64,000 bases of DNA from Okeania sp. KiyG1 (GTDB lineage: Bacteria > Cyanobacteriota > Cyanobacteriia > Cyanobacteriales > Microcoleaceae). The notes beneath the pieces were generated by a model, which ran no database searches, had not been told where the DNA came from, and was given only the letters and a program-made list of their open reading frames with translations. The stretch covers positions 35,368 through 99,367 of the forward strand of contig NZ_BLZO01000039.1 in the NCBI RefSeq assembly GCF_014132355.1. The letters run 5' to 3'. Shown here one piece after another: positions 21,229 through 30,968 of the stretch; position 1 is the first letter of the stretch; each line of letters starts with the position of its first letter. A program made the position numbers and the translations under genes.

Positions 21229-21304
21229 TAGCTATGGAACACAAATATTATCAAAAAATTCGACTTGCCAGAGGCGAGACTCAAGAGGTCAAGAGAGCAA
21301 AGCG

Positions 21305-22180
21305 CTATTCAAGAGTCCTGGGGGGGATACGCAATACACGAAAACCAGTAAAGAGGTTTAAGGTATCAAATGTGCTGCGGAACGCAGAGCGACAGTCTTT
21401 AGGAGAGTAGTTCCAGCAGCCACCACGAATGACTTTTTTAGTAGCCTTTGTAGTTTTTTGATTACCTAATAGCCACGCACCACTATCATTAGGTGCGTTT
21501 TCATAATTCTTGTGCAAATCATCTTCGCACCATTCAAAAACGTTGCCGTGCATATCGTACAATCCAAAAGAATTAGCAACTTTGAAGTAACCGACTGGAG
21601 TGGTTTGTTTTCTATGTTCTCCTTTTGGACCTCTGCCATAGGAACCACTGTAGATATTTTTACCAGTCTCTTGATCTACTCCATGGTAGTTAGCTAGGTC
21701 TGTAGTAATAGTTTCCCCAAAATGAAAGGGTGTAGTCGTTTCTGCACGACAAGCATATTCCCATTCTGCTTCACTAGGTAGCCGATATTCTCTCCCTGTC
21801 TTCTGAGTTAACCGGGCGCAGAACTCTTGAGCATCTAGCCAGGAAACTTGCTCAACTGGGCGACTCCAACGCTCATAGTTTTCATAGTCATCTTTAAAAT
21901 ATGAAGGGTCAGAATTAAGGTCACGTTCAATCCTTTCAGTGGTTTCGACAACGGCTTTCCACTGACCCTGAGTAATTGGATAACGCCCCATATAAAATTC
22001 AGGTACTGTAACTTCATGTTGGGGACTTTCCCTATTCTGTCGCTCTAATTCATCTTCTGGGGAACCCATGAGGAACTTACCCCCTGGAATCTTCACCATA
22101 ACTAGCTCAACATTATTACCCAGGTCTTCAATATAGTATTCAGCTTGTTGCTTCTTCTTACGAATAGTTATTCTTACCAT
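21305..22180 (-). CDS. FGE-sulfatase domain protein, candidate DGR variable protein
   Basis: The 291-residue protein has a short N-terminus MVRITIRKKKQQAEYYIEDL and one formylglycine-generating-enzyme/SUMF1 domain (C-type-lectin fold): IPGGKFLMGSPEDE, YPITQGQWKAV, PVEQVSWLDAQEFC, YRLPSEAEWEYACRA, LYDMHGNVFEWCEDD. The C-terminus RGGCWNYSPKDCRSAFRSTF then GFRVLRIPPRTLE has the layout of DGR variable regions, differing from its paralogues mainly where Asn codons would stand in a template. Only one of the two catalytic FGE cysteines is kept. It lies downstream of the VMAP block on the same strand and is probably a binding or sensor protein. Confidence 0.85.
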   Translation of the reverse strand: MVRITIRKKKQQAEYYIEDLGNNVELVMVKIPGGKFLMGSPEDELERQNRESPQHEVTVPEFYMGRYPITQGQWKAVVETTERIERDLNSDPSYFKDDYENYERWSRPVEQVSWLDAQEFCARLTQKTGREYRLPSEAEWEYACRAETTTPFHFGETITTDLANYHGVDQETGKNIYSGSYGRGPKGEHRKQTTPVGYFKVANSFGLYDMHGNVFEWCEDDLHKNYENAPNDSGAWLLGNQKTTKATKKVIRGGCWNYSPKDCRSAFRSTFDTLNLFTGFRVLRIPPRTLE

Positions 22181-22415
22181 TTCAGTTATCAGTCATCAGT
22201 TATCAGTTATCAGCTTTTTTCAGTTCTTTTGATGATGGAAAATAAGATTTTAGCAATCTCATCTGCACCTTTTCAGTTATCAGTTATCAGCTTTTTCAGT
22301 CCTTTGTGACCTAAAATAAGCTTGAGGTATATAGTAGCCGTCATTACTGTTAGGAAATTTTTAAACTCTCAAATTTAGTCATAGCAAGAATGTACAGGTA
22401 ATTCATAAATTACTC
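22181..22415. repeat. STRR (CAGTTAT) arrays and spacer
   Basis: Several runs of the heptamer TCAGTTA separated by A+T-rich DNA. There is no gene. Confidence 0.7.
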
Positions 22416-22611
22416 CTACTTCTGACTTTTAACTTCAAATATACCTTCATTTGCTTCTGCTATATTCGCTCCAATAGATGTCCCACTTCTCAACAATTGT
22501 TTAGATAATACATATTCTTTTTTTTCCTCAGTTAAATATTTATAAGCTTTGACAATTCTAATAGCAAATTAGTAAGCTTTTTGATAAACTAATGCTCTTA
22601 TTTATATCCAT
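22416..22611 (-). pseudogene. Four-helix-bundle (S23/bAvd-type) protein remnant
   Basis: Reads M D I N K S I S L S K S in one frame, then after a shift AIRIVKAYKYLTEEKKEYVL, then SKQLLRSGTSIGANIAEANE and a stop. The LRSGTSIGANIxEA motif is diagnostic of the S23 / TIGR02436 four-helix-bundle family, to which the DGR accessory protein Avd is related. Both the second half of the bundle and the reading frame are lost. It sits between two candidate DGR variable genes. These small genes are also common alone in cyanobacteria, so the link is not proven. Confidence 0.7.
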
Positions 22612-22671
22612 AAGTTTAGGCGCTAATAACTAAAAAAACTGATAACTGAAAAAGCTGATAACTGATAACTG

Positions 22672-23529
22672 TTAAAGAGTCCTGGGGGAGATACGCAATA
22701 CACGAAAACCAATAAAGTTGTACAAGTCATCCGGATTATAGATGTCGTGGTACGCAGAGCGACAGTTCCCTGGAAAGTCAGTCCATGAGCCACCACGAAT
22801 GACTGTTGTAGTAACTTCTGCAATGTTTTGATTACCTGGTGCGCGGTTAATATAGTGCCACTGCCGCTCATCTTTACACCATTCCAAAACGTTGCCGTGC
22901 ATATCGTACAATCCAAAGAAATTAGAAGTTTTAAAGTAACCGACTGGAGTGGTTTGTTCTCTATATTTTCCCTTTGGACCTCTACCATAGGAACCACTGT
23001 AGATAATCTCATCAATATCTCTATCTACTCCACAGTAGTTAGCTAGGTCTGTAGTAATAGTTTCCCCAAAATGAAAGGGTGTAGTCGTTCCTGCACGACA
23101 AGCATATTCCCATTCTGCTTCACTGGGTAACCGATAGTCTCTCCCTGTCTTCTGGCTTAACCGGGCGCAAAACTCTTGAGCATCTAGCCAGGAAACTTGC
23201 TCAACTGGGCGATTCCAACGCCCATAGTTTTCATAGTCGTCTTTAAAAAATGAAGGGTCAGAATTAAGGTCACGTTCAATTTTTTTAGTGGTTTCGACAA
23301 CTGCTTTCCACTGACCCTGAGTAATTGGATAACGCCCCATGTAAAATTCCGGCACTGTAACTTCATGTTGGGGGCTTTCCAAGCTCACTCGCTCTAATTC
23401 ATTTTCGGGAGAACCCATGAGGAATTTGCCTCCTGGAATCTTCACCATAGCTAGCTCAACATTATTGCCCAGGTCTTCTATATAGTATTCAGCCTGTTGC
23501 TTTTTCTCACAAATAGTTATTCTTACCAT
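22672..23529 (-). CDS. FGE-sulfatase domain protein, candidate DGR variable protein
   Basis: A 285-residue paralogue of the gene at 21305. I start it at MVRITICEKKQQAEYY (23529) because the paralogue starts there; the open frame to 23661 runs over a GC-rich tandem repeat. FGE domain motifs are as in the sister gene (IPGGKFLMGSPENE, YPITQGQWKAV, LPSEAEWEYACRAG, LYDMHGNVLEWCKD). The C-terminal RGGSWTDFPGNCRSAYHDIY then NFIGFRVLRISPRTL is variable relative to the two relatives while its flanks are conserved. It shares the strand with the VMAP operon but is cut off from it by repeats and the DUF559 gene on the other strand. Confidence 0.87.
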   Translation of the reverse strand: MVRITICEKKQQAEYYIEDLGNNVELAMVKIPGGKFLMGSPENELERVSLESPQHEVTVPEFYMGRYPITQGQWKAVVETTKKIERDLNSDPSFFKDDYENYGRWNRPVEQVSWLDAQEFCARLSQKTGRDYRLPSEAEWEYACRAGTTTPFHFGETITTDLANYCGVDRDIDEIIYSGSYGRGPKGKYREQTTPVGYFKTSNFFGLYDMHGNVLEWCKDERQWHYINRAPGNQNIAEVTTTVIRGGSWTDFPGNCRSAYHDIYNPDDLYNFIGFRVLRISPRTL

Positions 23530-23574
23530 TAATCTGCTAGGATAGCTTACAATTATTTCTATATTACTTCCTAA

Positions 23575-23800
23575 TCTTACTACTCCAGTCCCCCCCTCTT
23601 TTTTAGGCCACTTCAGTCCACTCCAGTCCCCCCTTTTTAAGGCTACTCCAGTCCACTCCAATTCCCCCTTTTTAAGGCTAACTCCAGTCCACTCCAGTTC
23701 CCCCCTTTTTAAGGCTACTCCAGTCCACTCCAGTTCCCCCCTTTTTAAGGCTGCTCCAGTCCACTCCAGTCCCCCCCTTTTTAAGGGGGGCTAGGGGGGA
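23575..23800. repeat. Tandem GC-rich repeat (about 40 bp unit)
   Basis: About five units of CACTCCAGTyCCCCCyTTTT followed by TAAGGCTACTCCAGTC. The last unit fuses to a TTAAGGGGGGCTAGGGGGGA palindrome. Confidence 0.75.
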
Positions 23801-23854
23801 TCAAAAAGCCAGGAGATATCAACATAGAAGTAAAACCAACCACAAACTCCCACC

Positions 23855-24238
23855 ATGCCAAAACTCAACGACTCCAACTTTCACCTCCCCTACAACCGCC
23901 AACTCGTCCCCATCGCCAAACAACTCCGCAAAAACCCCACTCCAGCAGAAAAAAAACTCTGGCAAGATTTCCTCAGAACTTTTCCCCTGCGCGTGTTGAG
24001 ACAGCGACCTATTGATAACTTTATTGTTGATTTCTATTGTGCTGCTCTGAGGTTGGTAATTGAAATTGATGGGGATAGCCACTTTACGGAGGAAGGAAAA
24101 GCTTATGATGCTGAGAGGACTTCTGTTTTGGAAGGTTATGGGTTACGGGTGATTAGGTTTACTAATGTTGAGGTTTTGCAAGAGTTTGAGGGAGTTTGTT
24201 GGCGGTTGGAGAGTTTGATTGGTGAGTTGAGAGATTGA
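23855..24238 (+). CDS. DUF559 (Vsr-like endonuclease fold) protein
   Basis: A 127-residue DUF559 protein. Motifs: AKQLRKNPTPAEKKLWQDFL, then LRQRPIDNFIVDFYC, LVIEIDGDSHF and YDAERTSVLEGYGLRVIRFT. The D...ExDG.H pattern is that of a PD-(D/E)XK-type nuclease related to very short patch repair enzymes. The family is common in cyanobacterial repeat-rich zones, and a DNA-cleaving role is inferred, not shown. It is on the opposite strand to the FGE and VMAP genes, inside repeats. Confidence 0.85.
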   Translation: MPKLNDSNFHLPYNRQLVPIAKQLRKNPTPAEKKLWQDFLRTFPLRVLRQRPIDNFIVDFYCAALRLVIEIDGDSHFTEEGKAYDAERTSVLEGYGLRVIRFTNVEVLQEFEGVCWRLESLIGELRD

Positions 24239-25047
24239 TCCCCCCTAACCCCCCTTGAAAAGGGGGGGACCGGAGTTGGAGAAGGAGCGATCGCTCCCCA
24301 AGTATAAGATTTCCCATTAACAGCAGGGATTTTTTTGTGTTGACTTTTGTCCTCCCCTTCTTTCTCTTGTCCCTCCCTTCTTCTCTTGTCCCCCCCTTCT
24401 TAAGGGGGGTTAGGGGGGATCAACACAGGAGCTATCAACCCGCAACTAACCTTCCGACTACTACCTCCAAGAGCGATCGCTCCCCAAGTATAAGATTTCC
24501 CATTAACAGCAGGGATTTTTTTGTGTTGACTCTTGTCCCTCCCTTCTTCTGTTGTCCCCCCCTTCTTAAGGGAGGTTAGGGGGGATAAACACAGGAGTTA
24601 TCAACCCGCAACTAACCTTCCGACTACTACCTCGAAGAGCGAACGCTCCCCAAGTATAAGATTTCCCATTAACAGCAGGGATTTTTTGGTGTTGACTCTT
24701 GTACCTTCTTCTTCTGTTGTCCCCCCCTTCTTAAGGGAGGTTAGGGGGGATAAACACAGGAGTTATCAACCCGCAACTAACCTTCCGACTACTACCTCGA
24801 AGAGCGATCGCTCTCTAACTCAAGATTTCCGCTCAACAGCAGGGATTTTTTGGTGTTGATTTTACCTTGGGTTTCGATCCCCCCTAACCCCCCTTGAAAA
24901 GGGGGGGACTGGAATTTGGTAACGTGCGATCGCTCTCTAACTCAAGATTTCCGCTCAACAGCAGGGATTTTTTGGTGTTGATTTTACCTTGGGTTTTGAT
25001 CCCCCCTAACCCCCCTTGAAAAGGGGGGGACTGGACTTTGGTAACGT
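24239..25047. repeat. Long tandem repeat block (165-180 bp, then 124 bp units)
   Basis: Three units of about 165-182 bp start near 24287, 24469 and 24637, each with GAGCGATCGCTCCCC, AACAGCAGGGATTTTTT and CAACCCGCAACTAACC. Two shorter units start near 24802 and 24926 with GCGATCGCTCTCTAACTC. HIP1-like octamers mark every unit. Frames across it are not genes. Confidence 0.85.
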
Positions 25048-25104
25048 GCGAACGCTCTTTTCTCTCGCCAAAGACTGGACTCAAGAGGGTAAAAGAGTGT
25101 CTAT

Positions 25105-27690
25105 TCAAGATACACGCAATACACGAAAACCAATAAAGTTATTCGAGGCAGCAGGAATATAGTTGTCGCGGTACGCGGTTCGACAGTATATGGGAATGTT
25201 ATTCCAGGAGCCGCCACGAACAATTTTCCTAGTAGTTTCTGTAGTATTTTGATTCCCTGATAGCCATGCACGACCATCATTGGGTGCGCCCTTATAATTA
25301 TTATGCCAATCATCTTGGCACCACTCATAAACATTGCCGTGCATATCATATAAGCCAAAAGCATTCGCTACTTCAAAACTACCTACAGGAGTTGTTTTTT
25401 TTCTATACTTATCTTTTGCCCCTTGGATATAAGTATAATTGCCGTTATAATTTGCTAAATTTGTAGTAATAGCTTTCCCAAAATGAAAAGGTGTAGTCGT
25501 TCCTGCACGACAGGCATATTCCCATTCAGCTTCACTGGGGAGCCGATAGTTTCTGCCTGTATATCTAGAGAGTCTGGCACAAAATTCTACTGCATCGTAC
25601 CAAGATACTGTTTCTACAGGTTGATTATCTCCTTTAAATCTTGAAGGGTTGGACTCAAGGTCACGTTGAATTTTCGGAACATTATTAACAATGGCTTTCC
25701 ACTGACCTTGAGTAATGGGATAGCGACCCATAAGAAAAGCTGAAACAATCACTATATGTTTAGGACTTTCATCACTAAAGCGTTCCACTTCATCTTCTGG
25801 GGAACCCATCAGAAACTTTCCTGTGGGGATTTCAACCAGTTCAAGTTTGATTCCATTGTCTAAGTCTTCAATAATGCCTGTAACTCGTCGGCGTTGTTTT
25901 TCAATTACCCATCCATTTCTCAAAAATCCTAAACGTCTTCTTTCCAGCTTTCCTACATCAAACTCAAACGTTACAGTTTCCTCCACCTCAATGAAGGCAA
26001 CGTCAAAGGTATCAATTAAAATTTGAGGTTCTGGTGTAATTTCTCCAGTTTCCCCCATTGTTGAATCTGGAACACTCGAAATATTCCGAGAAACCTCGCG
26101 AGCAAATTCGGCATATTCTCCCCCTAGATTTTCCAATACTTCAACAGCAACTTGAGCAAAAGGTAAAATTTTCTCCCGGTCTTCCTTTTCATATTGAGGC
26201 AATAACGTCAACAACGCCCGAAAACTACGAATAGGTCGGTCAATTTTTTCAGCTATGTCACGAGAAATAGCATCCAGAACCGCTGTAGTTTCATTGCGTC
26301 CCATTGCCTGATTCAACTCTTGTCGGACACCAGGGATAAATTCATAGATTTGTTCTTGACCGTTAGAGTCAGTTGCAGCAAGCAAACCTCCCATATAAAC
26401 TTCTGCTACATGAACAGGGGTAGCTTCTGGTAATAGATTTTTGCGAATCAAGTTAACCACAGATAAATTTACCGGAGCTGCTGCCATCATTCCTGCCAGT
26501 CGTTGAGCAGTAATAGAAGTTGTTGCCAGAAATTGCCTCACCCTAGTTGCTGCTGAAACTTCCTTTCTAGACTCGCTTTGCTGAGGTCGATCGCCATATT
26601 GTTCCTCAACAAATTCTAAATCAAATAAAAATATAGGTACTCGTGCGTTACTTGCTCCCGACACCACCCGACACCAACTTTTCAACAGTTCAGGTTCGGG
26701 TAGAATAACTGGTAAAACCAAAGCATTTTTCCAGTCAATATCTATCCAAGCAGGTAGATTTTCCAACACCAGACGGGGGTTAGCAACTCCTGGTGTAATA
26801 GCAGTACCGAATAATTTACGTCCCGCTCCCAGTTGGGTACTCTCCCAAAGATATTCGGGGAACATTTGTAGCACCGTAGTTGGGCTTTTTTCCGACCAAC
26901 TTTTTAACCAGCGGTGAATAGTTGCATTTTGCCAAACCCCAGAGGTACAGTCACTCACCAGAATAACTACTCCCCGTTGGTTGGGATGAATCAATTCTGG
27001 GTGACTATGTTCACGTTCCCTGGGTTTTCCACTGCTATCTCGCCGGACTAATTTTAACGATTTGCTTTTTGAACTCAGCAAACTCCAGACTCGCACATTT
27101 CTAAATGCTCCTTGAGTTTCAAAAATTTCTTGCAGTTCATTAACCGTCTCTCTCCAAATAAAAGCCGAACTAGACTCTTCTACCACCAGTTCTAGATCGA
27201 GCCACCGTTCCGGTTCTGGTTTAGTAACGGGCAACCACACATCCCGCTCGGCAATGAGATTCACGGTTGCTTCATCGTCTAGCACTTCCCCTGTAAGCGA
27301 GGGAACTTTCCGCATTAAAGGGCGCAGCGCACGGCCTAATTCCAGAACATTCTGGAGAGCTGCTGCTGCTGGAGCTTGAAAAGGTAAACCTTTGACTGGA
27401 GGTTGTTCGGGGGTTTGATGAGTTGGTTCTTCAGTGATGACTGAAACAATGGGTTCCCTGTCAGGTATAAATTCTAGTGGTTCACCTTCCTCAAATTCGA
27501 TCGCCAGAGGTTGTTCGGGTTCTGTTTTTTGCTCCTGCTTTTCTTGAGTCTCTACCTTACCCATTTGTAAAGCTAACCAGATGCTATCGGCAATATTTTC
27601 ATCGCTGAGTTCCAGACGTTTTAACATTCCGGTTTCATCGAGTCGGTCTATCAAACGTTCAATGGCATAATAAAGACTGGGACCGCTCAT
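25105..27690 (-). CDS. vWA-like (SAV_2336-type) protein fused to FGE-sulfatase domain
   Basis: The protein is 861 residues. Residues 1-140 are helical and acidic/Gln-rich. Residues about 150-330 look like a degenerate vWA fold (LDLELVVEESSSAFIW where vWA has DxSxS, then GVVILVSDCTSGVW) of the SAV_2336 N-terminal type. Residues 330-610 are helical. Residues about 615-861 are an FGE-sulfatase domain (IPTGKFLMGSPEDE, LPSEAEWEYACRAG, MHGNVYEWCQDD). The C-terminus RGGSWNNIPIYCRTAYRDNY then NFIGFRVLRVS is a candidate DGR variable region. It starts 3 bases after the MoxR stop, so the two are co-translated. In ternary VMAP systems the vWA/MoxR pair transmits a signal to the VMAP effector; here the FGE module would be the sensor. 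Confidence 0.82.
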   Translation of the reverse strand: MSGPSLYYAIERLIDRLDETGMLKRLELSDENIADSIWLALQMGKVETQEKQEQKTEPEQPLAIEFEEGEPLEFIPDREPIVSVITEEPTHQTPEQPPVKGLPFQAPAAAALQNVLELGRALRPLMRKVPSLTGEVLDDEATVNLIAERDVWLPVTKPEPERWLDLELVVEESSSAFIWRETVNELQEIFETQGAFRNVRVWSLLSSKSKSLKLVRRDSSGKPREREHSHPELIHPNQRGVVILVSDCTSGVWQNATIHRWLKSWSEKSPTTVLQMFPEYLWESTQLGAGRKLFGTAITPGVANPRLVLENLPAWIDIDWKNALVLPVILPEPELLKSWCRVVSGASNARVPIFLFDLEFVEEQYGDRPQQSESRKEVSAATRVRQFLATTSITAQRLAGMMAAAPVNLSVVNLIRKNLLPEATPVHVAEVYMGGLLAATDSNGQEQIYEFIPGVRQELNQAMGRNETTAVLDAISRDIAEKIDRPIRSFRALLTLLPQYEKEDREKILPFAQVAVEVLENLGGEYAEFAREVSRNISSVPDSTMGETGEITPEPQILIDTFDVAFIEVEETVTFEFDVGKLERRRLGFLRNGWVIEKQRRRVTGIIEDLDNGIKLELVEIPTGKFLMGSPEDEVERFSDESPKHIVIVSAFLMGRYPITQGQWKAIVNNVPKIQRDLESNPSRFKGDNQPVETVSWYDAVEFCARLSRYTGRNYRLPSEAEWEYACRAGTTTPFHFGKAITTNLANYNGNYTYIQGAKDKYRKKTTPVGSFEVANAFGLYDMHGNVYEWCQDDWHNNYKGAPNDGRAWLSGNQNTTETTRKIVRGGSWNNIPIYCRTAYRDNYIPAASNNFIGFRVLRVS

Positions 27691-27693
27691 CGT

Positions 27694-28746
27694 TTAATCC
27701 TCATCCTCAACTCTTCCTAAATCTTGGAAAAGTTGCTGCACTAATTTATCCTCAGCGAATGTTTTGCCTTCTGTAGCAGGAATGCGACCCTCTGTTACCA
27801 TGAAAATTGCATTCAGTAACTGGTCAGTTGCCAGAGTTCTCTCATCTCCTAGATTAATAAAACCCTCAATCAGTTGTTGTATTTTTTCCTGTTCCGCAGT
27901 AGCTTGATTAAAATGAGCAGTAACAATTCTGGTCAACTCCTCCTTTGTGGGAGATTTCATCCTTAAGCGCAAACACCGTCGTAAAAAAGGTGCGGGAAAA
28001 TCTCTCTCTCCGTTACTGGTCATTACCACAAAAGGGAAAGCGGTGCAAGTTATCCGCCCATTCTCAACTTCCGCTTCCATCTCAGAGGCAGTCTTTTCGT
28101 CAGTTTCATCAGTGTAAGCAGTACGCACCGTTACCTTGTCTACCTCTTTCTTAATTCTCACTAATTCTGGGATTTCAAAAAATCCTTCTTCTAGAATAGT
28201 CAGTAAGTTATTGGGTAGATCGATGTCACTTTTATCAATCTCATCTATCAGGAGAACGCGAGGATATTTTGACGGTAGCAAACTTGTACCTAAAGACCCC
28301 AGAGTTATATATTTTTCAATCTGTTGAATTTGTTCTCGACGTTCTTCTGGGGAAAGAGTTTGATTATTTAGGTTTTCCTGTTGTTTAGCTTCCTGTAACC
28401 GACCGATAGCATCATAACTGTATAGTCCCTCTTTCAAGGTAGTGCGAGTGGTAATTGGCCAGTAAAGCACTTCTCCCAGTTTCAGTTGTCGAGCTACAGC
28501 ATAAGCGAGGGAAGATTTACCCGTTCCTGGTTTGCCAGTAATTAGTAATGGTCGCCTCAAGTATAATGCAGCATTAATCATTTTTACCTCATCAGGACGC
28601 ACCTGAAAAGTTTCACCCCGTCGTTTCAGGCGACTTTCACCAGGTTTCCTCTCTTGGCTAAAGGGTCGCCAACTGGGAGGTGGTGGCAAATTTTCGATGC
28701 CATCGTGAGGTTCTATATTTTGTTTAAAAATTTCCCAATCACTCAT
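27694..28746 (-). CDS. MoxR-type AAA+ ATPase
   Basis: A 350-residue MoxR-family ATPase. Walker A is ITGKPGTGKSSLAYAVA, Walker B is YPRVLLIDEIDKSD, and the sensor 1/arginine-finger region is VVMTSNGERDFPAPFLRRCLRL. MoxR ATPases work with vWA proteins as metal-dependent remodelling chaperones, and the vWA-like partner is directly downstream. The first 45 residues (proline-rich, HDGIENLPPPPSWRPF) are typical of the conflict-system MoxR branch. Upstream, a family E element separates it from the trypsin-VMAP gene, yet strand and order suggest one transcription unit. Confidence 0.9.
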   Translation of the reverse strand: MSDWEIFKQNIEPHDGIENLPPPPSWRPFSQERKPGESRLKRRGETFQVRPDEVKMINAALYLRRPLLITGKPGTGKSSLAYAVARQLKLGEVLYWPITTRTTLKEGLYSYDAIGRLQEAKQQENLNNQTLSPEERREQIQQIEKYITLGSLGTSLLPSKYPRVLLIDEIDKSDIDLPNNLLTILEEGFFEIPELVRIKKEVDKVTVRTAYTDETDEKTASEMEAEVENGRITCTAFPFVVMTSNGERDFPAPFLRRCLRLRMKSPTKEELTRIVTAHFNQATAEQEKIQQLIEGFINLGDERTLATDQLLNAIFMVTEGRIPATEGKTFAEDKLVQQLFQDLGRVEDED

Positions 28747-29045: not shown

Positions 29046-30968
29046 TTAAGGCATCCTAAGTTGTTGAGCGGGTGGTACAAGATTGGGGTCATCCCAAAGC
29101 AATGATAAGTAATTGCCAATATCTTTGTCATCCTCTTTATCCCAAGCTTCATAACGTTTGGTTTTTATAGCTCTAGGTAACTTTGACCAACAGTTACAGG
29201 TGTTGCATACATCTTCCAGTGCCTCGCAACACTCTAGACTCTCTGCTTCTGGTCTCATCCACAGTGCTACAGGGATTCCGGCGTAGTAAAAGGCTTCCAT
29301 AATTGATTCTCGTTTCTCTGCTTGCAGCACTTCTGTTAATCTTACTGCCACAACATTGTCGGGATTAATTTGTTTGAAAACCCTCTTAATATTACTAATA
29401 CCTGAAGGATGAAAAATCTTGGCTGCTTTTTCACCTTGCCTGTTGGTTAGCGATCGCCACTTTTCCTCAAACTTACCTACATAAGGATTAGACTTTTGTG
29501 ACAACTTAAGACGTTCCGAAAACCTCACGGTTACTTCACATTCTGTCCCCAGTAAGGTTTGGAACTGTTCTGGTACATTCTCATCACTGAAATATCGATC
29601 TACTGGTTTGATATCCCGGTCAATTAATTTGTAAGGCAGAAACATTGAAATTTTATTCAGGTTAGAATCACAACGGGAAGGAACATCAGCCCAAAATGAC
29701 TGTAGTAGTTCAGTTAAATTTTTAGGCTTTTTCGACTCCGAGGTAGTTTTTTGACTAATTATAGTCCCTCTTTCATTCATCAAGATATCTTCTTCGTCAA
29801 TTAAAGGATAACAACCTTGAGCATTTTCGGGCGTATAATTTCGTGCATCTTTAATTAGCCATGCTTTCACAAAAAACCTACTACTTCTTTCAATAGCAGC
29901 TACTAATAGACAAGGTTCTTGTTGTTTAGAGTTAGATTTTTGCTGATTTTTGATCGCCTTCTCTTTTCTGAAAGCACCCATCAAACCTTGATGATTTTGC
30001 GAGTAATTTTCTAACCATTCTTTTAATTTATGACAAAGCTGAGGCAGAATATCTAAATCCTGGAGATGCAGTAGTAAAAAACAAATAAATCTCTCGAGTA
30101 AAGAATAATTTTCCTTCATTCGGTTATCCAAATTCTGAATAATCTCCCTCAAAGATTCAGGAAACTCATATAGAGATTTCCCAGAACTCAGAGGAATAGA
30201 ATTTTCTGGCAAAGATTCGTAGTAAGCACAACGTATCTCATCGCGATAATCTAGAAAATAATCCTGGAGAACAGCGATCGCCTGTTGTATCCTCCCATCA
30301 ACCTCACAAACATTGGCCAAATCTCCCACTTCGAGTAGTAGGTCTGTTGGTGTCAAAAAGGCCACTTTGGCTTCAGTGCGTTCCTGGTCTGCTTTTACTG
30401 CCATACCGACAACACCCTGAAGTTTTTCGTCCCAGATAGCAGTTCCACTAAACCCTTCTTCCAAACGAAGTCCTGTCTCTGTAATTCCCTCAACTTGGAT
30501 GCGACCTTGGCCTACTCGTTCTCTCAATTCTCCGGTAGCCCATTCGCCATCACCCCCTTTTTTGGGAAAACCTAATGCTCTAAACTTATGTTTCCAAAGA
30601 CTTTGATTTCCGATTTTAATTAAGTTAATTGGTTTAACACCTTGAGGAAGTAAACTAGGATTTATGAGTTTTAATACTGCAATATCTTGTATATTTTCCT
30701 CATCATTTAGAGGTTGCCAAAAAGCCACTTTTGTCTCAAGTTTTTTACCTATCTTGCCTTTCTCAAAAACAGGAAAATTAACTTCAATAATTTGGTTAGG
30801 CATTTCTTTCTGCCTCATAATTTTTTTTGCATTTTCTAGAGAAGAAGCTAAAGAGTAAGCCACTACATGGGCACAAGTTAAAATATACTCAGCAGAAACC
30901 AAAAACCCCGAACCAACGATACTACCTCCAGATTTAAAAACCCTAACAACAGCTAATTCTAAACCCAT
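29046..30968 (-). CDS. Trypsin-VMAP effector protein of a ternary conflict system
   Basis: The protein is 640 residues. Residues 1-215 are a trypsin-like peptidase with a visible triad: His in GSGFLVSAEYILTCAHVV, Asp in NIQDIAVLKL, Ser in LEEGFSGTAIWD. Residues about 225-340 are a helical middle region. From about 350 to the end the sequence matches the VMAP C-terminal domain: FLPYKLIDRDIKPVDRYF, VTVRFSERL, AGIPVALWMRP and the end YLSLLWDDPNLVPPAQQL. VMAP proteins (vWA-MoxR-associated) couple NTPase signalling to an effector; here the effector would be proteolysis. There is no signal peptide, so action is in the cytoplasm. It starts 24 bases after the Trypco1 stop. Confidence 0.85.
   Translation of the reverse strand: MGLELAVVRVFKSGGSIVGSGFLVSAEYILTCAHVVAYSLASSLENAKKIMRQKEMPNQIIEVNFPVFEKGKIGKKLETKVAFWQPLNDEENIQDIAVLKLINPSLLPQGVKPINLIKIGNQSLWKHKFRALGFPKKGGDGEWATGELRERVGQGRIQVEGITETGLRLEEGFSGTAIWDEKLQGVVGMAVKADQERTEAKVAFLTPTDLLLEVGDLANVCEVDGRIQQAIAVLQDYFLDYRDEIRCAYYESLPENSIPLSSGKSLYEFPESLREIIQNLDNRMKENYSLLERFICFLLLHLQDLDILPQLCHKLKEWLENYSQNHQGLMGAFRKEKAIKNQQKSNSKQQEPCLLVAAIERSSRFFVKAWLIKDARNYTPENAQGCYPLIDEEDILMNERGTIISQKTTSESKKPKNLTELLQSFWADVPSRCDSNLNKISMFLPYKLIDRDIKPVDRYFSDENVPEQFQTLLGTECEVTVRFSERLKLSQKSNPYVGKFEEKWRSLTNRQGEKAAKIFHPSGISNIKRVFKQINPDNVVAVRLTEVLQAEKRESIMEAFYYAGIPVALWMRPEAESLECCEALEDVCNTCNCWSKLPRAIKTKRYEAWDKEDDKDIGNYLSLLWDDPNLVPPAQQLRMP

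What the first reader, a model, noticed from the sequence alone, without database searches (positions are those of the whole stretch)
21305..25218. Three candidate DGR variable regions in FGE/C-type-lectin domains
The C-terminal 37-41 codons of three paralogues (21305-21427, 22672-22797, 25105-25218) share fixed flanks (RGGxW, CR(S/T)A, GFRVLR). They differ at sites that in a DGR template would be AAC/AAT asparagine codons: W-NNIPIY-C, W-TDFPGN-C, W-NYSPKD-C and the stretch before GFRV. Most variable codons (AAC, TAC, GAC, ATC, TTT, CTC) can be reached from AAC/AAT by changing only the A positions. Known: FGE-sulfatase domains are frequent DGR targets in cyanobacteria, including linkage to VMAP-type systems.
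Basis: partly seen in the sequence, partly recalled or inferred. Interest (0 to 1): 0.85.

Follow-up and report, generated by a model that had tools for sequence, protein, structure and literature searches.

The report
Immune-sensor genes orphaned by their mutator
Three neighbouring genes in a cyanobacterial immune-like system carry marks of a natural protein-mutating machine (a diversity-generating retroelement), but the machine is missing from the spot where relatives keep it and the only other copy found in this genome is broken, so these sensor genes were probably diversified in the past and are now fixed.

Summary
In detail: three FGE/C-type-lectin domains (21305-22180, 22672-23529, 25105-27690, minus strand) have variable C-terminal stretches between fixed flanks. 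The third is fused to the sensor of a VMAP ternary conflict system. In a Trichodesmium relative the same gene order also holds Avd, a DGR reverse transcriptase (RT) and a template repeat (TR); ten VRs there differ from the TR at 144/270 adenine but 25/780 other sites. In the window these parts are absent; a DUF559 gene and repeats lie there. The 92%-complete assembly shows no matching TR and one DGR RT, elsewhere, split by a 1.7-kb insertion. The window VRs keep a footprint of past retrohoming: a 3' end shared by both paralogue classes within the genus yet different from Trichodesmium (4/18 versus 2/609 sites, P=7e-6), and change at codon positions 1+2 above the third-position yardstick. Bias to Trichodesmium template adenines is significant for g1 only and absent for g3. 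Verdict: DGR variable regions by descent, orphaned and probably frozen; a trans-acting DGR in unassembled sequence is not excluded.

The parts
21305..22180 (-). g1: stand-alone FGE/C-type-lectin protein (291 aa)
   Evidence: PF03781 E 1.5e-52; same class as the stand-alone FGE genes of G003 and Trichodesmium G011
21329..21415 (-). variable region of g1, W to GFRVLR; 3' core 21329-21346
22672..23529 (-). g2: stand-alone FGE/C-type-lectin protein (285 aa; the ORF can be extended to TTG 23661)
   Evidence: PF03781 E 3e-50; start by comparison with G003
22693..22785 (-). variable region of g2; 3' core 22693-22710
23530..25104 (.). interval between g2 and g3 where G011 carries Avd, DGR reverse transcriptase and TR; here tandem repeats (23582-23786, 24364-25058) and a DUF559 gene
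   Evidence: no significant RT or Avd match; the same DUF559 interval in G003; repeats
23855..24238 (+). DUF559 gene
   Evidence: PF04480 E 4.8e-27
25105..27690 (-). g3: SAV_2336-N-type protein fused to a C-terminal FGE domain, the presumed ternary-system sensor
   Evidence: NF041121 E 6.8e-140, PF03781 E 1.7e-55
25114..25206 (-). variable region of g3; 3' core 25114-25131
27694..28746 (-). MoxR-like AAA ATPase
   Evidence: PF07728 E 6.6e-9; PF20030 bpMoxR E 2.8e-4, below its cut-off
29046..30968 (-). trypsin-like protease fused to VMAP-M1 and VMAP-C
   Evidence: PF20028 E 1.7e-26, PF19963 E 6.3e-20, PF13365 E 1.2e-11

Best explanation
The three stretches are DGR variable regions that have lost their diversifying machinery. 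In the ancestor, Avd, an error-prone reverse transcriptase and a template repeat lay next to the fused sensor gene (g3) and copied a mutated template into the 3' ends of both classes of FGE gene (shown by synteny in relatives; inferred for this lineage). The core was later lost from this place, where repeats and a DUF559 gene now lie; the same interval in a congener suggests that this came before their split. Variable positions kept changing after the split, so either a copy of the DGR acted in trans for a time or selection did it. Today the lectin loops are most likely fixed ligand-binding surfaces of a VMAP-MoxR ternary conflict system, with g3 as sensor, an AAA ATPase as threshold switch and a trypsin-VMAP protein as effector. 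These roles are inferred from published predictions, not shown.
For: Same gene order with Avd, RT and TR in Trichodesmium G011 and in Dolichospermum UHCC 0259 (sensor and FGE in one open frame; TR/VR differences 13/13 at A). Ten G011 VRs differ from the TR at 144/270 A sites and 25/780 other sites. Window: no significant RT or Avd match; TR matches only at the VRs and one FGE 3' flank. Assembly: no TR with the same core; one DGR RT, split by 1724 bases with inverted ends. Shared 3' end across both paralogue classes in the genus: 4/18 sites versus 2/609 in the body, P=7e-6; cross-class differences rise at positions 1 and 2 (0.255 to 0.483, 0.186 to 0.455) while position 3 falls (0.434 to 0.274; P=0.08 alone, 0.008 with the core). 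VR positions 1+2 exceed body third positions in g3/G003a, g2/G003b, g1/G003b and g1/g2 (P 4.2e-3 to 1.5e-4). Window VRs have more third-position change (21/66; 18/68) than six family-2 VRs of the same genome (39/375), as expected of an older freeze. DGR RTs are disrupted or partial at 7 of 8 loci found in this genus and Trichodesmium and at 0 of 7 loci in other cyanobacteria; G011 also has a relic of Avd and RT with 2 stops beside two family-2 VRs.
Against: The assembly is 92% complete in 198 contigs, so a DGR may be unassembled. Adenine bias against the Trichodesmium TR is weak for g2 and absent for g3; the genus's own TR is unknown. Third positions of g1/g2 are not lower in the VR than in the body (7/21 versus 34/227), and g3/G003a third positions are higher (10/24 versus 46/232, P=0.02). 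One of six tested pairs, G003b/G011sol, shows no excess at positions 1+2 over body third positions (14/48 versus 67/228). In G011 a second VR family is fresh (third-position difference 0.013) although no TR for it was found, so a missing TR in a draft genome is weak evidence of loss. The G011 RT itself has one in-frame stop.
Confidence: 0.6

Rival explanations
1. The VRs are still diversified in trans by a DGR whose reverse transcriptase and TR lie in the unassembled part of the genome.
For: Diversification best explained by trans activity is reported for some incomplete loci of Thiohalocapsa PB-PSB1 (passages of PMC10907252). Family-2 VRs in the same genome are fairly fresh (third-position difference 0.104 versus 0.408 and 0.333 at positions 1 and 2) though no TR was found for them. 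The assembly is 92% complete.
Against: The window VRs carry more third-position change than family 2 (21/66 versus 39/375). The congener G003 (99% complete) also has the locus, with no RT match at E below 1e-30 and no TR with the core. The only DGR RT found in the own genome is interrupted.
Confidence: 0.23
2. No DGR was ever involved in this lineage: ordinary FGE paralogues whose exposed C-terminal loop evolves under diversifying selection, with some gene conversion between paralogues.
For: No TR; weak or absent adenine bias in g2 and g3; FGE C-termini are generally Asn-rich (recalled).
Against: Orthologous genes are DGR targets in relatives; the 3' core is homogenised across paralogues (P=7e-6); cross-class third positions are lower in VR plus core than in the body (P=0.008).
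Confidence: 0.12
3. Gene conversion among FGE paralogues alone spread the shared 3' core and reshuffled the loops.
For: The core is identical in three own copies and two congener copies; g1 and g2 are close duplicates (body third-position difference 0.15).
Against: Conversion would homogenise codon positions 1 and 2 as well; here these are the most divergent sites, beside an unchanged core.
Confidence: 0.05

Closest known systems
DGR-associated VMAP ternary conflict systems of cyanobacteria (Kaur et al. 2020, PMC7159879; Dore et al. 2024, PMC10907252; passages seen)
   Same: MoxR-like AAA, trypsin-VMAP and a fused sensor with a C-terminal FGE/C-type-lectin domain holding the VR
   Different: No RT, Avd or TR at the locus. 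Kaur et al. report DGR association for about 80% of cyanobacterial and gammaproteobacterial VMAP systems, so this falls in the rest.
Trichodesmium DGR cassette with remote targets (here G011 contig C237)
   Same: Orthologous genes in the same order; the same VR position and frame
   Different: Avd, RT and TR are present there (the RT with one in-frame stop); a different 3' core (CTTGTGAGT instead of GTATTGCGT)
all3226 of Nostoc PCC 7120 (Vallota-Eastman et al. 2020, PMC7517822, section 6 read)
   Same: Variable-protein paralogue with remnant TR-VR homology and no proximal RT; [quoted passage not shown]
   Different: There one dispersed paralogue in a genome with two DGRs; here the main sensor and two paralogues of a ternary system, with no intact DGR found in the assembly
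Treponema denticola TvpA (PDB 2y3c), a solved DGR variable protein
   Same: Same fold class: third Foldseek match (E 2.5e-12, TM 0.58); sequence match E 1.5e-14
   Different: Rank 1 in both searches is PvdO (5hha), not a DGR protein; the model has mean pLDDT 69 and part of its VR is of low confidence

Membership tests
DGR (complete, operating element) | DGR-type reverse transcriptase, intact, in the genome | tested here: not met
   One DGR RT found, split by 1724 bases on contig C43; assembly 92% complete
DGR (complete, operating element) | Template repeat matching the VRs outside its adenines | tested here: not met
   None with up to 2 mismatches to the 17-mer or by BLAST; with up to 3 mismatches to the 18-mer only the three VRs and two sites at 3 mismatches, against 34 for the reversed control
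DGR (complete, operating element) | Avd accessory gene at the locus | tested here: not met
   tblastn of the G011 Avd and RT finds nothing better than E 0.09 in the window
DGR variable region (by descent) | Homologous and syntenic to a proven TR/VR pair | tested here: met
   G011; Dolichospermum UHCC 0259
DGR variable region (by descent) | Substitutions confined to template adenines | tested here: inconclusive
   Against the Trichodesmium TR: g1 13/23 A versus 11/43 other (P=0.017), g2 11/25 versus 12/47 (P=0.12), g3 9/25 versus 18/47 (P=1); the genus's own TR is unknown
DGR variable region (by descent) | Homogenised 3' homing end shared by distant copies | tested here: met
   4/18 versus 2/609 genus-fixed sites shared across paralogue classes (five sequences of the genus and two of G011, G008 left out)
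DGR variable region (by descent) | C-terminal position in a C-type-lectin/FGE fold | tested here: met
   PF03781; Foldseek PvdO, TvpA, FGE
VMAP ternary conflict system | MoxR-like ATPase, vWA/SAV_2336-type protein and VMAP protein in one cluster | tested here: met
   Pfam gives no separate vWA match to g3, NCBIfam gives SAV_2336_NTERM
VMAP ternary conflict system | Antiviral or cell-death activity | not testable with these tools
   Predicted only, in the cited papers
Catalytic formylglycine-generating enzyme | Catalytic cysteine pair | not tested
   No alignment to a catalytic enzyme was examined for these residues

The most novel reading that the evidence does not exclude
In this cyanobacterial genus and in Trichodesmium the DGR engines are collapsing while the receptors they made are kept: 7 of 8 DGR reverse-transcriptase loci found in seven genomes are disrupted or partial, yet each of the nine genomes searched by pattern keeps family-2 VRs, and the window's VMAP system keeps three open VR genes. 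A DGR would then be a disposable receptor-maker whose products become a fixed, inherited repertoire of immune-like sensors.
Probability: 0.35. Interest if true: 0.65.

Novelty: new member of a known kind. Interest (0 to 1): 0.45.

Why it matters
What becomes of hypervariable receptors when the mutator is lost is an open point in the DGR field. Here the before state (Trichodesmium, Dolichospermum) and the after state (window, G003) of one orthologous locus can be compared base by base, so the idea that DGRs are shed once good variants are found (put forward for all3226 in PMC7517822) becomes testable by sequencing strains. It also warns that an FGE variable region beside a VMAP system is not by itself evidence of ongoing diversification.

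Tried and rejected
Rejected: that the DGR on contig C43 serves the window VRs. Its TR matches its own VR (14 of 15 differences in the first 110 bases at A), has a different 3' end (GGTTTTCGTATTGTC, not GGTTTTCGTGTATTGCG), and its 30 matches in the own genome at E up to 10 include none of the three window VRs.

Rejected: that 21253-21301 downstream of g1 is a scar of the lost Avd-RT part (85.7% match). Similar stretches follow other FGE copies in G011 and G029, and of nine such loci tested eight have no Avd or RT match, so it is more likely a flank copied with the FGE gene. The ninth, L268, holds an Avd fragment (32 aa) and an RT fragment (69 aa, 2 stops) between two family-2 VRs.

Led nowhere: a hairpin 3' of the VRs (in some G011 VRs at about 75 bases, none in g1 or g2); PADLOC (only weak matches for window proteins); a TR for the second VR family. 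The survey of 80 near-neighbour loci found an RT in 7 and a system partner in 12 (4 of these with an RT); many loci are cut short and they were chosen by likeness to g2, so these are not rates. Rows dropped: of the G011 VRs, the copies at C149 (another length) and C27:13441 were not scored, two of the ten scored (L265, L267) are identical, and two G029 VRs scored there are outside the total; family-2 counts use only loci held (6 VRs each for G000, G011 and G026) and of one length.
Full report
What is there. On the minus strand the window holds a trypsin-VMAP gene (29046-30968), a MoxR-like AAA gene (27694-28746), a SAV_2336-N protein with a C-terminal FGE domain (25105-27690, g3), and two stand-alone FGE genes (22672-23529, g2; 21305-22180, g1). 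This fits the VMAP ternary system described in PMC7159879 and PMC10907252 (passages seen). The finding's three C-terminal stretches and their flanks are as described.

Where the engine sits in relatives. A search of 99 genomes (98 relatives and the own one) with g2 DNA gave close matches in G003 (same genus), G011 and G008. G011 contig C237 has the same order of genes, but with an Avd (NF033474, E 1.3e-35), a DGR reverse transcriptase and a TR between the fused FGE gene and the stand-alone one. Ten G011 VRs differ from that TR at 144 of 270 adenine sites and at 25 of 780 other sites; three of the ten carry 24 of those 25. Dolichospermum UHCC 0259 shows the order VMAP, AAA, fused FGE, Avd, RT, TR (the fusion is one open frame), with 13 of 13 TR/VR differences at A. 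So a core next to the fused FGE gene is likely ancestral.

What is missing here. tblastn and blastn with the G011 Avd, RT and TR region find no significant remnant in the window besides the VRs themselves and the 3' flank of g1 (see for the flank). The 1.6 kb between g2 and g3 hold tandem repeats and a DUF559 gene; G003 has the same DUF559 interval and no RT in it, which suggests that the loss came before their split. G008 also lacks Avd and RT at its locus. In the whole assembly the 17-base core occurs only in the three VRs, and BLAST of the g3 VR finds only the three at E below 0.2. Of 36 RVT_1 matches in the own genome all but one (C153, same score as C152) lie in loci that I held; a motif screen gave a line for 18 of 28 loci, one of them with the DGR-type motif. 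Profile and protein searches agree: one match to the G011 RT at E below 1e-30 and, with the own RT piece, nothing else better than E 6.6e-9. That RT lies on contig C43, interrupted by 1724 bases with 15-base inverted ends, beside its own Avd, TR and VR.

Footprint of past retrohoming. Five VRs of the genus (g1, g2, g3, G003a, G003b) end in the same 18 bases. In the gene body the two paralogue classes are old: 54 of 609 sites separate the classes across genera and only 2 separate the genera across classes. In the 18-base end it is 0 and 4 (P=7e-6; G008 not included). That is concerted evolution at the VR end, as expected if one template wrote both classes. Across classes, VR positions 1 and 2 differ more than in the body and third positions less (0.274 versus 0.434; P=0.08, or 0.008 with the core). 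The G011 pair is the positive control: VR third positions 0/25 versus 74/217. VR positions 1+2 changed more than body third positions in g3/G003a (21/48 versus 46/232), g2/G003b (21/48 versus 42/228), g1/G003b (17/42 versus 44/231), g1/g2 (18/42 versus 34/227) and G003a/G011fus (25/48 versus 45/226), but not in G003b/G011sol (14/48 versus 67/228).

Results against. Scored against the Trichodesmium TR, adenine bias is significant for g1, G003a and G003b, not for g2, and absent for g3. Over the five VRs, template-A columns hold 2.56 distinct bases and others 1.64 (P=4e-6), but A columns coincide with codon positions 1 and 2 of loop residues, so this is confounded. g3/G003a third positions are higher in the VR than in the body (10/24 versus 46/232, P=0.02); a template with adenines at some third positions would explain it (codon 4 shows all four bases), but that is a guess. 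The G008 pair shows no third-position drop (0.54 versus 0.56).

Wider picture. The own genome has 31 FGE matches; 24 C-terminal rows could be read, at least one a chance frame. A second VR family (seven genes on contigs C66, C82, C85, C91 and C113) shows a much clearer footprint: pairs whose bodies differ at 0.41 or more of third positions differ at 1 to 5 of 25 in the VR (P down to 6e-7); pairs with similar bodies show no such drop. Matches to its pattern occur in all nine genomes searched (none for the control), and a made-up template query matched in all twelve searched. Of the family-2-like sites that I read (61 rows, some repeated) none looks like a TR; not every match was read. In G011 six such VRs are fresh (third-position difference 0.013), so a missing TR in a draft is weak evidence. 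The window VRs look older (21/66, versus 39/375 for six own family-2 VRs). DGR RT loci in this genus and Trichodesmium: 8 in 7 of 15 genomes searched (two of the 15 are of other genera and have none); 7 of the 8 are split, stop-bearing or partial, G004 alone being open, while 7 of 7 RT loci among the 80 named near-neighbour loci are open (my arithmetic, P about 0.001; drafts may hold errors). G001, G002, G003, G005 and G008 have no such RT at E below 1e-30. G011 contig C171 keeps a relic of Avd and RT between two family-2 VRs.

Mechanism and reading. The DGR cycle (recalled, and as summarised in PMC10907252, section 0 part 1 of 9 read) writes an adenine-mutated copy of the TR into the VR. The best reading is that this cycle made the three loops and that the lineage then lost the cycle but kept the sensors, now a fixed set. 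Shown: synteny, absence from locus and from the assembly as searched, broken RT, homogenised 3' end, fast change at positions 1 and 2. Inferred: that diversification has stopped, and what the sensors bind. Fold: an AlphaFold model of g2 (mean pLDDT 69, part of the VR weak) matches PvdO and TvpA.

Known or new. Vallota-Eastman et al. (PMC7517822, section 6 read) already describe a variable-protein paralogue with remnant TR-VR homology and no RT nearby and propose shedding of the diversifying parts; Dore et al. describe degenerate loci, some best explained by diversification in trans (passages). In the titles and abstract starts listed by the paper searches I saw no account of lineage-wide RT loss in Trichodesmium and its relatives; this library lacks many journals, and the Trichodesmium transcriptome paper was not held. 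Filed as a new member of a known kind.

Noticed in passing
G000 contig C43, locus L128 3600-7973 (minus): Separate DGR in the same genome: FGE target, Avd, reverse transcriptase split by a 1724-base insertion with 15-base inverted ends and a probable TTTTA duplication, and a TR; 14 of 15 TR/VR differences in the first 110 bases lie at adenines.
   Followed up: yes
G000 contigs C66, C82, C85, C91, C113 (L302, L304, L305, L307, L314, L321, L322): Second FGE VR family with a strong DGR footprint (VR third positions 1-5/25, body up to 0.53) and no TR seen in this or the relatives' genomes.
   Followed up: partly
L268 3117-3526 (G011 contig C171): Fragments of Avd (32 aa) and DGR reverse transcriptase (69 aa, 2 stops) between two family-2 VRs: a relic of a lost DGR core.
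   Followed up: partly
L259 8242-10420 (G001 contig C501): Relic of an FGE variable region cut in two by an insertion element, near genes 94-98% identical to those beside the intact locus in G003.
   Followed up: partly
L133 1897-2960 (G011): The Trichodesmium DGR reverse transcriptase has one in-frame stop near its start although most of its VRs look fresh.
   Followed up: partly
L146 5036-10191 (Scytonematopsis contorta MAG): AAA and sensor-type genes and an FGE gene followed by a short Avd match and no reverse transcriptase match: possibly another orphaned locus.
   Followed up: no
L265 8643 and L267 4222 (G011 contigs C27 and C164): Two loci share an identical VR and nearly identical 3' flanks: recent duplication, or one place assembled twice.
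   Followed up: no
G000 contigs C152-C155: Four contigs carry RVT_1 matches with the same score, perhaps assembly duplicates or repeated group II introns.
   Followed up: no
window 23582-23786 and 24364-25058: Tandem arrays of 36, 166 and 122 bases on either side of the DUF559 gene, with GATCCCCCCTAACCCCCC and GCGATCGC motifs.
   Followed up: no
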